The position numbers and the translations under genes were made by a program. A stretch of DNA of 64,000 bases, taken from Pseudomonas fluorescens. Lineage in GTDB: Bacteria; Pseudomonadota; Gammaproteobacteria; Pseudomonadales; Pseudomonadaceae. The number at the start of each line of letters is the position of its first letter. The stretch's first letter is position 1. The DNA lies in NCBI RefSeq assembly GCF_900215245.1, contig NZ_LT907842.1, positions 3,410,001 to 3,474,000 on the forward strand, in the 5' to 3' direction. Under the pieces are notes generated by a model. The model had not been told where the DNA came from, did not search any database, and was given only the letters and a program-made list of their open reading frames with translations. Below are positions 3,541 through 50,834 of the stretch, one piece after another.

Positions 3541-5040
3541 TCACGAATCTCGAAGCGTTGCAGCATCCACAATGCGATTGCGCCCCCTGTGCTTGGCTTC
3601 ATACAGCGCCTGATCCGCACTCAGTAACACTGCCTCCAATGAAGTGCGGCTGCGTTTATCCCAGGTACTCATGCCGATACTCACGGTAACCGGCCGCTCG
3701 GCGCCGGCCACCCGTGGCAAGTGCTCGACACTGCTGCGGATATGCTCGGCAATCACCCATGCGCCCTTGGCGTCGGTGTGCGGCAGCACCACCGCAAACT
3801 CCTCCCCGCCAAATCGTGCCGCCAGATCAGCCGGACGGCGGATGTTGTTGTCGATGACGTGAGCCACCGTACGCAATGCCTCGTCGCCACCGTGGTGTCC
3901 ATGGCGGTCGTTGAAGGCCTTGAAGTGATCAACGTCGATCATCAACAGCGTCAGCGGCTCGGCCGAGCGTTGCGCACGGTCCCATTCCAGGCGCAGGCGC
4001 TCGTCCAGGGTGCGGCGATTGGCCAGGCCGGTCAGCGCGTCAGTGGCTGCCAGTTCTGACAGCACCTGTTCGGCGCTATGGCGACGGCGCAGTTCTTTGC
4101 CGAGCATCCAGGTCAACCACAGTAGACCCATGCACAGCACGCCCGTGGCGACGGCGACCAGCAGGGCTGCTCGCCGCCATTGGGCGAAAACTTCGTCGCT
4201 GGACAGGGCCACCGCCACGATCAGCGGCAAGTTGCCGACGCTGGAGAAAGTGTAAAGCCGCTCCTGCTGGTCAACGCTGGAAATGCCGCGAAAGTTGCCC
4301 TCACGCTCCTTGAGCATCCGCGCCACGTTGGGACGCCGGCTGAAGTCCTGATTGATCAGGTCCTGAACCAGCAGCGGGTGCTGTGCCAGCACAATGCCTT
4401 CGTGGTTGATCAGGTTGATGGTGCTGTTACTGCCGATATTCAGGCTGCTGAACAACTGATTGAAGTACGACAGGCGCATGGAGGCCACCGCGACGCCCTG
4501 GAAGCGCCCGTCCGGCCCGGATAGGCGGCGGCTGAATGCAATACGCCACTTATCGTCACACACGCAGCGCGCCATGAACGGGCGGCTGATATACAGCCCG
4601 AGGTCCGGATTTTTCCGTTGAGCCTTGAAGTAGTCACGATCAGCAAAGTTTTCCTTCTTTGGCGCGAGTAACGAAGCGTCGGCAATGACCTCGCCATTGG
4701 CGTCCAGCAGCAGAATATCGCCCTTGTAGGGCGCGGCAGTGGCGCGGTCGAACAATATGAGGTGGCGAATACTGGCGGAAACGTCTTGCAGGTCACTGCG
4801 TTCGGTCGCGGCGATCAGCCCCTTGAGGGCCATGTCGTAGAGCTCGATGTTGCGCTGCACATCGGCGTCGATCAGTTGGGTGATGTTGTTCGCGGTGCGT
4901 TTGGCGGTCTGCAGGGCCGTGGCGTGTTCGTGAATCAACAGCGCTGCAACCATCCCGACGATCAGCAGGGCCGTGAGCGCGCTGCCCAGGATCAACAAGC
5001 GTTCCGGGCGACGTGTGGGGCGGGACGGGCGTGGGCTCAT
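3541..5040 (-). CDS. Membrane diguanylate cyclase with periplasmic Cache-like sensor
   Basis: Predicted to make c-di-GMP from two GTP. 499 residues: cytoplasmic N-terminus, membrane helix at about 15-36, periplasmic sensor (about 37-285, double-Cache style, with the ADRDYFKAQRK-type segment), second helix at about 288-310, then a GGDEF domain. The active-site loop is GGEEF near residue 411, and an RxxD inhibitory site (RPAD) sits five residues before it, so product inhibition is expected. The upstream ribosome site is weak. The gene is a close paralogue of the next one, in the same orientation 63 bp away. The signal sensed cannot be read from sequence. Confidence 0.92.
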   Translation of the reverse strand: MSPRPSRPTRRPERLLILGSALTALLIVGMVAALLIHEHATALQTAKRTANNITQLIDADVQRNIELYDMALKGLIAATERSDLQDVSASIRHLILFDRATAAPYKGDILLLDANGEVIADASLLAPKKENFADRDYFKAQRKNPDLGLYISRPFMARCVCDDKWRIAFSRRLSGPDGRFQGVAVASMRLSYFNQLFSSLNIGSNSTINLINHEGIVLAQHPLLVQDLINQDFSRRPNVARMLKEREGNFRGISSVDQQERLYTFSSVGNLPLIVAVALSSDEVFAQWRRAALLVAVATGVLCMGLLWLTWMLGKELRRRHSAEQVLSELAATDALTGLANRRTLDERLRLEWDRAQRSAEPLTLLMIDVDHFKAFNDRHGHHGGDEALRTVAHVIDNNIRRPADLAARFGGEEFAVVLPHTDAKGAWVIAEHIRSSVEHLPRVAGAERPVTVSIGMSTWDKRSRTSLEAVLLSADQALYEAKHRGRNRIVDAATLRDS

Positions 5041-19650: not shown

Positions 19651-19743
19651 TGCAGGCGGGCTCATCGACTACGGAAGAATACCAAGCACGCTAACATTCC
19701 TGTCGACGATTGTCAGGACGACCGTTTAACAGTGGGCGCTGGC

Positions 19744-19990
19744 TTTACCCCACCACTCGTTGCCTCGCTTAGGCTCGGCATGCCCTCTGTGCGGCTTGAA
19801 TCCGTGGTTAACGGGCCGGTCAGATCAAACGCAAGCGCACGGCGGCACACGCACTGTCTGATGTACCTGGATCCAAATGTGGGAGCGGGCTTGCTCGCGA
19901 ATGCGATGGGTCAGCCCGCTTATCTGTAACTGATACGCCGCCTTCGCGAGCAAGCCCGCGCCCACCATTTTACCGAGTTCAACTGCCAGC
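19744..19990. repeat. Partial copy of the composite palindromic repeat
   Basis: Bases from 19744 (CCCCACCACTCGTTGCCTCG) match the left arm of the element at 49043-49645 (its bases from about 49143), including GGCTCGGCATGCCC, GTGGTTAACGGG and GTCAGATCAA. Then comes a REPIN in the same place and the shared tail TACCGAGTTCA. The outer 61-bp terminal repeats are absent. This accounts for most of the 471-bp gap between the reductase and the LysR gene; no gene is seen in the rest. Confidence 0.75.
19879..19965. repeat. REPIN
   Basis: Left arm GTGGGAGCGGGCTTGCTCGC, right arm GCGAGCAAGCCCGCGCCCAC (one change from the standard arm). It forms the core of the surrounding composite repeat. Confidence 0.9.
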
Positions 19991-48160: not shown

Positions 48161-48940
48161 CTATTCCGGTGCGTGATCGCGCAAAAACACCAAATTGTCC
48201 GGCTTGGACTGCTCGGCATTGAAGCGATAACCCTGCACATCAAATTGCTTGAGCTTGGCCGGGTCGTTGATGCGCTCTTCGATCACAAAGCGGCTCATCA
48301 TGCCCCGCGCTTTTTTGGCGTAGAAGCTGATGATCTTGTACTGGCCGTTCTTCAGGTCCTTGAATTCGGTGTTGATGATCCGCGCGTTCAGGGCCGTGCG
48401 CTTGACCGCCGAGAAGTATTCGTTGGAGGCCAGGTTGAGCAGCACGTCATCGCCTTGGTCGGCCAGCGCTTCATTCAACCACTCGCTGATGCGCGTGCCC
48501 CAGAACGCGTAGAGGTCCTTGCCACGGGCGTTGGCCAGTTTGGTGCCCATCTCCAGGCGGTACGGCATCATCAGGTCCAGCGGACGCAGCAGGCCGTAGA
48601 GGCCCGAGAGCATGCGCAGGTGGTCCTGGGCGTAGCTGAAGTCGGCATCGCTGAACGTTTCGGCGTTCAGGCCGGTGTAGACATCGCCTTTGAACGCCAG
48701 CAGGGCCTGCTTGGCATTGGCCGGCGTGAAGGCCGGCGTCCAGCTGCCGAAGCGGGCGGCGTTGAGGCCACCGATTTTATCGGAGACGTGCATCAACTCG
48801 CTGATTTGCGCCGGGCTCAGTTCACGCAATTGTTCGATCAGCTCTTGGGAGTGGTCGAGGTATTGCGGCTGGGTGAAGCGCGGGGTGACCGGCTGTGACT
48901 CGAAGTCGAGGGTTTTGGCGGGGGAAATCACCATCAGCAT
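48161..48940 (-). CDS. yaaA: Peroxide stress protein YaaA
   Basis: DUF328 family; in E. coli it lowers free iron under peroxide stress. 259 residues from [24 protein letters not shown] eight bases upstream fixes the ATG. Family motifs seen: [60 protein letters not shown]. Divergent from the gene at 49710; the large palindrome lies in the shared upstream gap. Confidence 0.93.
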
Positions 48941-49042
48941 GAAGTTGGCTCCTGAATTCGTGGCGTGTCGCGTGGGCGGGATTCTAGGGGGTTGGGGGGT
49001 TAGACTCCACCTATGATGGTGATAGGGCGCTGCTTTGTCGTG

Positions 49043-49645
49043 GGTGTACATATCCGTTGCTGCGGTAACGGCGGCTTAGGGTTCCGCCCTTACCGCGGGT
49101 CACTTTTTTACAAACGCCTAAAAAAGTAACCAAAAAACGCTTTGCCCCACCACTCGATGCCTCGCCCAGGCTCGGCATGCCCGCACTCCGGCCATCGTGG
49201 TTAACGGGGCCTGTCAGATCAAGATCAACAGCAAATCAAAAGCAGAGCACGGCGGCCTGGTAGCCGACCTGAGTGGTAGAAGCAAAAGCAGGGCAAAAGC
49301 ACAGCAGGGGCAGATCAGAAGCAGAACTGCTTTTCTGTGGGAGCGGCGGGTGACGATTCGACTTGCCCGCGAATGCGCTGGGTCAGTCACCCGATGCATC
49401 AACTGACACGCTGCTATCGGGAGCAAGCCCCTTCCCACATTTAACCGAGTTCAGCTTCCAGGATCAGGTCGGCTGTCAGGCATCCTCGGCGTTGCTTTTG
49501 ATCTACACCACTCAGGTCGGCAACCGGGGCGCCGTGCACTGCTTTTGATCTTAGGCGGCCCGCTCCGTACAGGCTCTATCAAACGTGACCCGCTGTAAGC
49601 CCGCAACCCTGAGTGGCTGTTACCCAAACAACGGATATACACACC
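49043..49645. repeat. Nested palindromic composite element with REPIN core
   Basis: Outer arms 49043-49103 and 49585-49645 are 61 bp each and inverse-complementary at 48 of 61 positions. Inner arms 49235-49277 and 49507-49549 are 43 bp each and match at 39 of 43. A REPIN (49337-49439) is in the centre. No transposase or other gene is present. It spans most of the 769-bp divergent gap between yaaA and the deacetylase-like gene, ending 64 bp before the latter's start. The remaining bases hold no gene. Confidence 0.85.
49337..49439. repeat. REPIN at the centre of the composite element
   Basis: Left arm begins GTGGGAGCGG and then carries an extra GGGTGACGATTCGA before ACTTGCCCGCGAATGCG; right arm GGGAGCAAGCCCCTTCCCAC. 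The arms are longer and less alike than in other copies. Confidence 0.7.
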
Positions 49646-49709
49646 AACCCAGTAGCTCCCCCAGGTGATCGGCTATAGTGCCCGACAACTCTGGAAAGGG
49701 AGACCCTGT

Positions 49710-50834
49710 GTGCGAATTGCGTTTTTACTGTCGGCTTGTTTGCTGTGCTTGGGCGCCCAGGCGGCGCCGGTGGACGTGGCAAGCCTGGACCGTGGTGTCT
49801 GGCCGGAGAAGCTAAGCAGCCCCGCGCTGTTCGACGTCGCCTCACGCGCCGAAATCCTGATGTTCGCCCATAGCTTGATCGCCAGCGAAGCCCAGGACGA
49901 AGCCGTGCTCAAGCAGCGCCTGGGCCTGAAGATCATCAACCTGGCTTCCATTGACGACCTGCGCCGGCAACTCTGGCAGCGCCTGTTGGAGAACTACACG
50001 TTTGCCCAGCAAAGCTGCGAAGAAGATGCCTCGTTCTGCTACCTGGTGGAAAGCATGGACGACCTGCGCGAACAGGCCGGCAAGTTCCAGGTCAGTGATG
50101 ACTCCTTCTATATAGGCTGGGCCAACCCCAGCCACAGTTTCCATGAGCGCTACCTGGACGAACTGCTGCGCAAAGCCGCGTTGTTCCCGCAGATCAGCAG
50201 TGAGATCGCGCGTTTTGGCGACCACGAACGCAATGGCGACGAATTCAACGACCGCATGTTCCTGCTGACCTTCGACGGCGGCCCGGCACCCGTCAGCGGC
50301 AATACTGACTGGCTCACTGACTACCTGCGCAAGCAGAAGCTCAACGCCACCTTCTTCGTCCTCGGCAGCAGTCTGCAAACCCGCGTTGAGCGCAGTTCGG
50401 CGGCTGACGTACAAGCGTTGTACCAGGGCCAGTGCGTGGGCACCCAGGGCTGGCAGTATCGCTCCCACAGTCATTGGGTCGAGTGGCAAGGCTCGATCAC
50501 GCGCAGTGCATCGCTGGCGCAGAACCTGATGCCGGAAAACTACGTGCCGCTGTTTCGCCCGCCGTACGGCCAGCGTCGCGCCGACAGCCAGGGCTTCTTC
50601 CAGTCCCAGGGTTTGCAGGTGGCGCTGTGGGATATCGACTCGCAGGATGAGCCGGGCAAACTCAAGGCTGATGAGGCGGCGCAACGGCTGCTGACGTTGA
50701 TGTTGCTATGGCGCAAAGGGGTGATTGTGTTTCACGACACCCAGGACAAGGCGCGGGTCGCATTACCGATGTTGCTACAGGCGACGGCGCAAAGTGGGCT
50801 GGGTTGGCAGGACTGTCGGGAGGCGTTTCGCTGA
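49710..50834 (+). CDS. Polysaccharide deacetylase (NodB)-like protein with altered metal motif
   Basis: Exported or periplasmic. 374 residues from GTG at 49710, supported by AAAGGGAG. Signal peptide of about 18 residues (MRIAFLLSACLLCLGAQA), an N-terminal helical region (about 20-180), and a NodB-like C-terminal domain. Motif 1 is TFDGG (187-191) where an active enzyme has TFDD. Motif 2 is SHSH (252-255) without the His expected at the end of H-S/T-x-x-H. RPPYG (about 283) and HDT (about 342) are kept. Activity is therefore doubtful. Confidence 0.75.
   Translation: MRIAFLLSACLLCLGAQAAPVDVASLDRGVWPEKLSSPALFDVASRAEILMFAHSLIASEAQDEAVLKQRLGLKIINLASIDDLRRQLWQRLLENYTFAQQSCEEDASFCYLVESMDDLREQAGKFQVSDDSFYIGWANPSHSFHERYLDELLRKAALFPQISSEIARFGDHERNGDEFNDRMFLLTFDGGPAPVSGNTDWLTDYLRKQKLNATFFVLGSSLQTRVERSSAADVQALYQGQCVGTQGWQYRSHSHWVEWQGSITRSASLAQNLMPENYVPLFRPPYGQRRADSQGFFQSQGLQVALWDIDSQDEPGKLKADEAAQRLLTLMLLWRKGVIVFHDTQDKARVALPMLLQATAQSGLGWQDCREAFR

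What the first reader, a model, noticed from the sequence alone, without database searches (positions are those of the whole stretch)
49043..49645. 603-bp nested palindrome with a REPIN at its centre, in a divergent promoter gap
Seen: 61-bp outer arms (48 of 61 matched by hand), 43-bp inner arms (39 of 43 matched) and a REPIN in the middle. The inner arms match better than the outer ones, suggesting selection or recent conversion. It carries no protein gene and lies upstream of both yaaA and the deacetylase-like gene. Inference: a non-autonomous mobile element or a structured RNA/DNA regulator that a REPIN invaded or helped to form.
Basis: partly seen in the sequence, partly recalled or inferred. 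Interest (0 to 1): 0.7.

Follow-up and report, generated by a model that had tools for sequence, protein, structure and literature searches.

The report
Decayed copy of a Pseudomonas palindrome
The 603-base palindrome is a worn, shortened copy of a hairpin-rich repeat found at many places in many Pseudomonas genomes; it was inserted between these two genes, usually surrounds a short mobile repeat (REPIN), and in intact copies its arms hold a known RNA motif of unknown function.

Summary
In detail: outer arms 48/61, inner 39/43, best inverted score 37 against at most 17 in 300 shuffles. It is not a local oddity. At least 17 loci in this genome carry the arm, as do 227 of 298 sampled Pseudomonas genomes, own included, but none of 273 other genomes of the class. 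The window copy is an insertion: G210 holds an 861-bp version at the same place, many relatives have an empty gap, and occupation of this gap needs at least four changes on a 49-genome tree. Core ends are sharp (GNGTACATATCC), without target duplication, with G/T-rich tails that empty sites lack. A REP lies inside 30 of 35 copies from other genomes, so the REPIN is family architecture. Arms carry Rfam TwoAYGGAY in 16 of 17 loci here; the window copy lost it. Some copies also sit inside a separate MITE with CATAGGTATCTAC ends, 10-bp duplications and REP targets. Mobility is supported; recent arm conversion is not; a regulatory role here is untested. What moves the core is unknown. New variant of a known kind.

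The parts
48161..48940 (-). yaaA, left neighbour, reading away from the element
   Evidence: PF03883, E 4e-93
49031..49042 (.). left junction tail (G/T-rich on the plus strand), part of the insert
   Evidence: present in G000 and G210, absent from empty sites; other tails in G192 and G199
49043..49192 (+). left arm, outer part, with core end GNGTACATATCC (G at 49044)
   Evidence: 84-97% identical to left arms at 16 other loci of this genome; end defined over 199 ends
49187..49192 (.). junction (approximate) of the 92-bp deletion that removed the TwoAYGGAY hairpin
   Evidence: alignment with the G210 copy; TwoAYGGAY present in 16 of 17 loci, absent here
49235..49277 (+). left inner arm
   Evidence: 39 of 43 against 49507-49549
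49336..49440 (.). central REPIN-like stretch, apparently a fusion of two REPINs across a deletion of roughly 160 bp (limits approximate)
   Evidence: alignment with G210
49507..49549 (-). right inner arm
49585..49645 (-). right outer arm with core end (reads inward on the minus strand); much of the middle of the right arm is missing, in G210 too
   Evidence: 48 of 61 against 49043-49103
49646..49665 (.). right junction tail (G/T-rich on the minus strand), part of the insert
49710..50834 (+). polysaccharide-deacetylase gene, right neighbour, reading away from the element (start codon GTG inferred)
   Evidence: PF01522, E 1e-11

Best explanation
The stretch is a degenerate copy of a genus-wide, multicopy, non-autonomous mobile palindrome of Pseudomonas. 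The intact unit is: core end GNGTACATATCC, an arm of about 260 nt made of hairpins and including the TwoAYGGAY motif, usually one or more REPINs, then an inverted arm with the same end. Shown: the family, its sharp ends, insertion at this site before G000 and G210 separated, repeated occupation of this gap, tails that belong to the insert, no target duplication, and later internal deletions in the window copy. Inferred: the core moves by an unidentified recombinase (or by capture at breaks) that recognises the hairpin ends, inserts without duplicating the target and leaves G/T-rich junctions; in some genomes it is also carried as cargo of a CATAGG-ended MITE that lands in REPs. The window copy is probably inert.
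For: Multicopy in the own genome: 163 BLASTN matches, 17 of 20 fetched stretches with core arms. Arm in 227 of 298 Pseudomonas genomes. Empty sites in relatives and an 861-bp orthologue in G210. At least four changes of occupancy on a tree of 49. Conservation starts abruptly at GNGTACATATCC over 199 ends. 46 inverted pairs, no duplication in 704 settings, best z 2.2. Flanks G/T 0.69 against 0.50, and tails absent from empty sites. REP inside 30 of 35 pairs. Directional arms: left-left 0.937, left-right 0.819.
Against: No enzyme or autonomous partner was found: all 85 inverted pairs seen are at most 2.5 kb apart. No movement was observed. Shared old sites (L016 site) show that many copies are inherited, not new. 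Four changes on the tree could include losses. G/T-rich tails could have arisen after insertion.
Confidence: 0.7

Rival explanations
1. All copies, this one included, were delivered by the CATAGGTATCTAC-ended MITE (a transposase giving 10-bp duplications in REP sites); copies without those ends have lost them.
For: CATAGG ends bound core-containing elements in this and other genomes; 30 of 39 end pairs have a duplication matching at 8 or more of 10 positions, 20 exact, against 18% of mispaired controls. In G310 the core in this same gap has a right end resembling the CATAGG repeat beside a REP-like sequence.
Against: The CATAGG end (exact) occurs in 41 of 298 genomes, the arm in 227 of 298. 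In G199 the left tail between chromosome and core end at this gap is only a few bases long. Over 199 ends conservation stops at GNGTACATATCC.
Confidence: 0.12
2. The unit is an outsized REPIN or BIME mosaic, moved by the REP-associated tyrosine transposase (RAYT) acting on its REPs.
For: REPs lie inside 30 of 35 pairs, and 19 of 199 core ends have a REP within 60 nt outside; RAYTs do not make target duplications (recalled), which fits.
Against: The conserved boundary is GNGTACATATCC, not a REP. Five of 35 pairs have no REP by the motif used. G134 has arms but no Y1_Tnp match, although PF01797 may miss a RAYT.
Confidence: 0.12
3. The element is kept here as a structured RNA or DNA regulator (terminator, decoy or insulator) of yaaA and the deacetylase gene.
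For: Very stable fold; arm stems covary across the genus; it lies upstream of both genes.
Against: The gap is empty in many relatives. This copy lost the TwoAYGGAY hairpin and one REPIN. No promoter-like site; the one terminator-like site is at chance level. Copies are mostly next to convergent or tandem genes: 54 convergent, 44 tandem, 15 divergent of 113 classified.
Confidence: 0.04
4. The palindrome arose in place by inverted duplication or template switching, without any mobile family.
For: Stem changes are mostly double (164 cells against 36 one-sided), which template switching can also produce (general idea from the abstract of PMC8794818 in the listing).
Against: Homologous copies at many other loci and in other species.
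Confidence: 0.02

Closest known systems
TwoAYGGAY RNA (Rfam RF01731)
   Same: The large hairpin of the arms scores above gathering in 16 of 17 loci here and 19 of 20 elsewhere; two loops with GGA. Listed by Weinberg 2010 from human gut, gamma-Proteobacteria and Clostridiales (PMC2864571, passages); proposed to bind CsrA (PMC4333381, passages).
   Different: Here it is one piece of a longer inserted palindrome, present in both arms and reading outward; the window copy has lost it. Transcription and CsrA/RsmA binding are untested.
REPINs and REP sequences of Pseudomonas (Bertels and Rainey 2011)
   Same: REPINs lie in the centre, in some copies as tandem arrays, and REPs serve as targets of the CATAGG MITE. 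PMC3116915 was seen in passages only.
   Different: The arms, the core ends and the size are not those of a REPIN; boundaries are not REPs.
P. fluorescens intergenic repeat families R178 (101 bp, 11-bp internal inverted repeat) and R200 (320 bp), Silby 2009
   Same: Sizes, the internal inverted repeat and low copy number would fit pieces of this arm (PMC2718517, table passage and section 10).
   Different: Their consensus sequences are in a supplement that could not be read, so identity is a lead only. The parts I saw do not describe the full palindrome with a REPIN.
MITEs and foldback elements (general classes, recalled)
   Same: Long inverted arms, no coding capacity, multicopy; the CATAGG-ended layer has 10-bp target duplications.
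   Different: The core gives no target duplication, has G/T-rich junction tails and no known transposase.

Membership tests
TwoAYGGAY RNA (RF01731) | Score at or above the gathering score (43 bits): window copy | tested here: not met
   No match in 48500-50200 at E up to 1 nor in L009
TwoAYGGAY RNA (RF01731) | Score at or above the gathering score: intact relatives of the window copy | tested here: met
   16 of 17 core loci of this genome; 19 of 20 loci from other genomes, which were chosen for their arms
TwoAYGGAY RNA (RF01731) | Transcribed as RNA | not testable with these tools
   No expression data
Mobile (inserted) repeat | Multiple dispersed copies | tested here: met
Mobile (inserted) repeat | Empty orthologous site in relatives | tested here: met
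   Ten short gaps of 125-138 bp that could be read directly: G004; G219, G132, G184, G112, G178, G103, G135, G043, G134
MITE of a DDE transposase | Target-site duplication at the core ends | tested here: not met
   46 pairs, 704 settings, best z 2.2
MITE of a DDE transposase | Target-site duplication at CATAGGTATCTACRCA ends (other copies, not the window copy) | tested here: met
   30 of 39 pairs match at 8 or more of 10 positions, 20 exact; mispaired control 18%
MITE of a DDE transposase | Autonomous partner with the same ends | tested here: inconclusive
   None at the 30 PF01609 loci inspected; 85 core pairs, none over 2.5 kb; other transposase families not searched
REPIN | Two inverted REPs as the boundaries of the unit | tested here: not met
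   Boundary is GNGTACATATCC; REP within 60 nt outside at 19 of 199 ends
Silby R178 / R200 | Match to the published consensus | not testable with these tools

The most novel reading that the evidence does not exclude
A genus-wide mobile palindrome with its own insertion chemistry: defined hairpin ends, no target duplication, and untemplated or slippage-made G/T-rich (sometimes telomere-like) tails at both junctions. By spreading it disperses paired TwoAYGGAY hairpins with GGA loops, that is, RsmA/CsrA decoys, through Pseudomonas genomes.
Probability: 0.15. Interest if true: 0.85.

Novelty: new variant of a known kind. Interest (0 to 1): 0.5.

Why it matters
It gives a genomic home to an orphan Rfam family: all 21 TwoAYGGAY hits listed for this genome (of 23 found) lie in these palindromes, which bears on how that family should be read, although in more distant Pseudomonas many copies lack the full palindrome by the tests used. 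It also sets a testable puzzle (sharp ends, no target duplication, G/T-rich tails, repeated use of one gap) about how long palindromes enter and persist in bacterial chromosomes. The window copy itself is ordinary: a decayed member.

Tried and rejected
The first script on the yaaA gap crashed on a locus without hits and was rerun. An IS4-type (PF01609) partner for the CATAGG ends was guessed from recalled IS186/IS231 ends; at the 30 loci inspected no end with 3 or fewer mismatches was found. Two long CATAGG intervals (L236, L245) showed only ORFs that look like ordinary genes by eye (not run against a family library), and closer mates show that neither interval is one element. Target duplication of the core: none in 704 settings. 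Arm-to-arm conversion: not supported; locus L018 has 44-nt inverted flanks at 95% identity, which most relatives read at that site lack, though L337 has a similar stretch on its left side. G/T-rich flanks as a general property of gene 3' ends: rejected (mean 0.50 for 144 convergent and 185 tandem flanks). Plasmids and phages: 4 and 5 records with matches, best coverage 43% and 19%, so spread on them is not evident. Y1_Tnp presence did not track the arm. Papers: both end motifs gave nothing relevant by title (CATAGG end 0 papers; core end 24 papers, 20 listed, none about Pseudomonas repeats, only the 10-base form matched in those listed); repeat, foldback, MITE and RsmA terms listed no paper that I recognised as describing this unit; 7 papers hold the word TwoAYGGAY, 5 listed, passages of three read.

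Dropped or limited: 222 core ends became 199 after removing duplicates, and only ends followed by a GGTTCCGC-like stretch were kept. 30 of 143 elements lay at locus edges and were not classified (simple ORF caller). In one search only 40 of 215 candidates were scored, only two per genome, at most 54 per genome, so copy numbers are lower bounds. The REP count covers the whole stretch between the two ends. One of 28 arms chosen for diversity (a longer variant of L086) was left out of the alignment. In one search the G189 gap (L291), which holds an arm fragment without its end and a duplicated flank, was labelled 'none'. Deacetylase aligned in 18 of 28 other genomes and in 21 of 24.

Full report
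What is there. The element lies between yaaA (minus strand) and a polysaccharide-deacetylase gene (plus strand), without a supported ORF or a sigma-70-like promoter. The only Rfam match in 48500-50200, gntR-DTE at 26.4 bits against a gathering score of 63.6, lies in yaaA.

It is one of many. BLASTN of the 603 bases against the own genome gives 163 matches (40 of 215 candidates scored). Of twenty stretches fetched, 17 hold core arms (L009-L025), two hold fragments (L026, L027) and one holds only a REPIN array (L028). Over the first 150 nt left arms share 93.7% identity between loci and right arms 86.4%; left and right arms of one element share 81.9%, no more than between loci (81.4%). The two-armed copies of this genome measure 0.6 to 1.7 kb and have one or more REPINs between the arms, in some with a 273-bp period (L021, L022, L025). 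The arm is present in 227 of 298 Pseudomonas genomes, own included (E up to 1e-10), and in none of 273 other genomes drawn from the class (E up to 1e-6). Of 35 inverted pairs from other genomes, 30 hold a REP between their two ends and the median size is 759 bp.

The window copy is an insertion that decayed. None of the 18 aligned gaps of other genomes holds the core. Among 24 further genomes, G210 (yaaA fragment 96% identical) has an 861-bp core at the same place with nearly identical tails. Ten relatives have a short gap of 125-138 bp in which the sequence runs straight from the yaaA side to the deacetylase side (G004; nine). G192 and G199 carry the core at the same place with different tails, and G310 carries it with a right end resembling the CATAGG repeat beside a REP-like sequence. 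On a yaaA tree of 49 genomes the five occupied gaps need at least four changes, in bootstrap trees too. The gap is therefore used repeatedly, unless losses are common.

Ends and tails. Over 199 distinct ends conservation begins abruptly at GNGTACATATCC. Forty-six inverted pairs show no target duplication at any of 704 combinations of length and offset (best z 2.2). The 40 nt outside, on the strand that enters the element, are G/T-rich (mean 0.69 against 0.50; 90 of 199 above 0.7 against 1.2% of random windows), falling from 0.73 in the first 20 nt to 0.59 at 60-80 nt. Some tails are simple repeats, such as (GGGTT)n and (TGG)n at L088. At the yaaA gap the tails are absent from empty sites, so they came with or after the insert. 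At the L016 site the flanks in G000, G210, G103, G017 and G260 differ from one another but stay G/T-rich, while G219, G004 and G043 have no element. Neighbouring genes are convergent in 54, tandem in 44 and divergent in 15 of 113 classified elements, against 72, 185 and 127 of 384 gaps without the element, so the divergent gap of the window is the least common setting.

A second mobile layer. Some copies in this genome lie inside longer elements ending in CATAGGTATCTACRCA. That end occurs exactly in 41 of 298 genomes and bounds elements of 59 to 1,450 bp with varied content, with or without the core. Of 39 end pairs, 30 show a 10-bp duplication matching at 8 or more positions, 20 of them exactly; mispaired flanks reach 8 in 18%, because most targets are REPs. 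This is ordinary MITE behaviour. The transposase was not found.

The arm is structured and partly known. On 27 divergent arms the 69 pairs of the predicted structure are 97.4% paired, 25 pairs have double changes, and the covariation score is 0.253 against 0.02-0.04 when partners are slid; the number of further pair types does not exceed the shuffles (180 of 500). Changes are mostly double (164 cells) and less often one-sided (36). DNA hairpins, template-switch correction of quasipalindromes or RNA could all do this; I cannot separate them. The large hairpin is Rfam TwoAYGGAY: 16 of 17 core loci here and 19 of 20 loci elsewhere score above gathering, on the strand that reads outward from the centre. 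All 21 hits listed for this genome lie in these loci (two of 23 are not listed). GGA is kept in both loops (24 of 24 rows with letters, 27 of 27). Gardner and Eldai (author names recalled) proposed that TwoAYGGAY binds CsrA (PMC4333381, passages). That every Pseudomonas has RsmA-type proteins is recalled, not tested.

TwoAYGGAY is not always part of the full palindrome. In 38 relatives it matches in 16 genomes, two of them outside the genus, and in none of 14 control genomes. Of 16 stretches fetched from more distant genomes (L361-L376), four, all from G015, have the homologous end GGGCATATCCGTT, five have an inverted repeat of 40 nt or more (two of these are also among the four), and nine show neither; the four from G017 and G010 (L377-L380) have both core ends.

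Verdict. The finding is a decayed member of a widespread family that combines known parts (REPIN, TwoAYGGAY, MITE-like spread, perhaps Silby's R178 and R200) in an arrangement that I did not recognise in the papers searched; those searches cover open-licence papers only. The unexplained points are what inserts the core and why its junctions are G/T-rich.

Noticed in passing
window 19742-19989 (L027:1743-1990): A second, fragmentary relative in the same window: 83% identity to element positions 97-180, followed by a REPIN match.
   Followed up: no
L028:1281-2414 (own genome 5751780-5752913): A tandem array of seven REPIN matches at about 172-bp spacing, without palindrome arms.
   Followed up: no
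L012:2428-2521, L024:2427-2514, L026:2137-2223, L380:81-166: C4 antisense RNA matches (RF01695) close to several palindrome copies or fragments; chance or shared intergenic preference not tested.
   Followed up: no
L088:870-1069 and 1869-2083; L096:1661-1862 and 3796-4011: Two cobalamin riboswitches in opposite orientation in each locus; in L088 they lie on the two sides of the palindrome (1130-1784).
   Followed up: no
L329 and L331, just inside the arm: The arm is interrupted by what looks by eye like insertion sequences (families recalled, not tested).
   Followed up: no
L291 (G189), yaaA gap: The gap holds an arm fragment without its end and a direct duplication of the flanking region, possibly a trace of instability.
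   Followed up: no
yaaA gap in G017, G181, G080, G156, G065: The same gap holds REPIN-like palindromes instead of the large element, by eye in most, so it is a common landing place for intergenic repeats.
   Followed up: partly
contigs of L108, L115, L119, L124, L128, L131, L151 and others: Several draft contigs end within a few hundred bases of an arm, as expected for a repeat that breaks assemblies.
   Followed up: no
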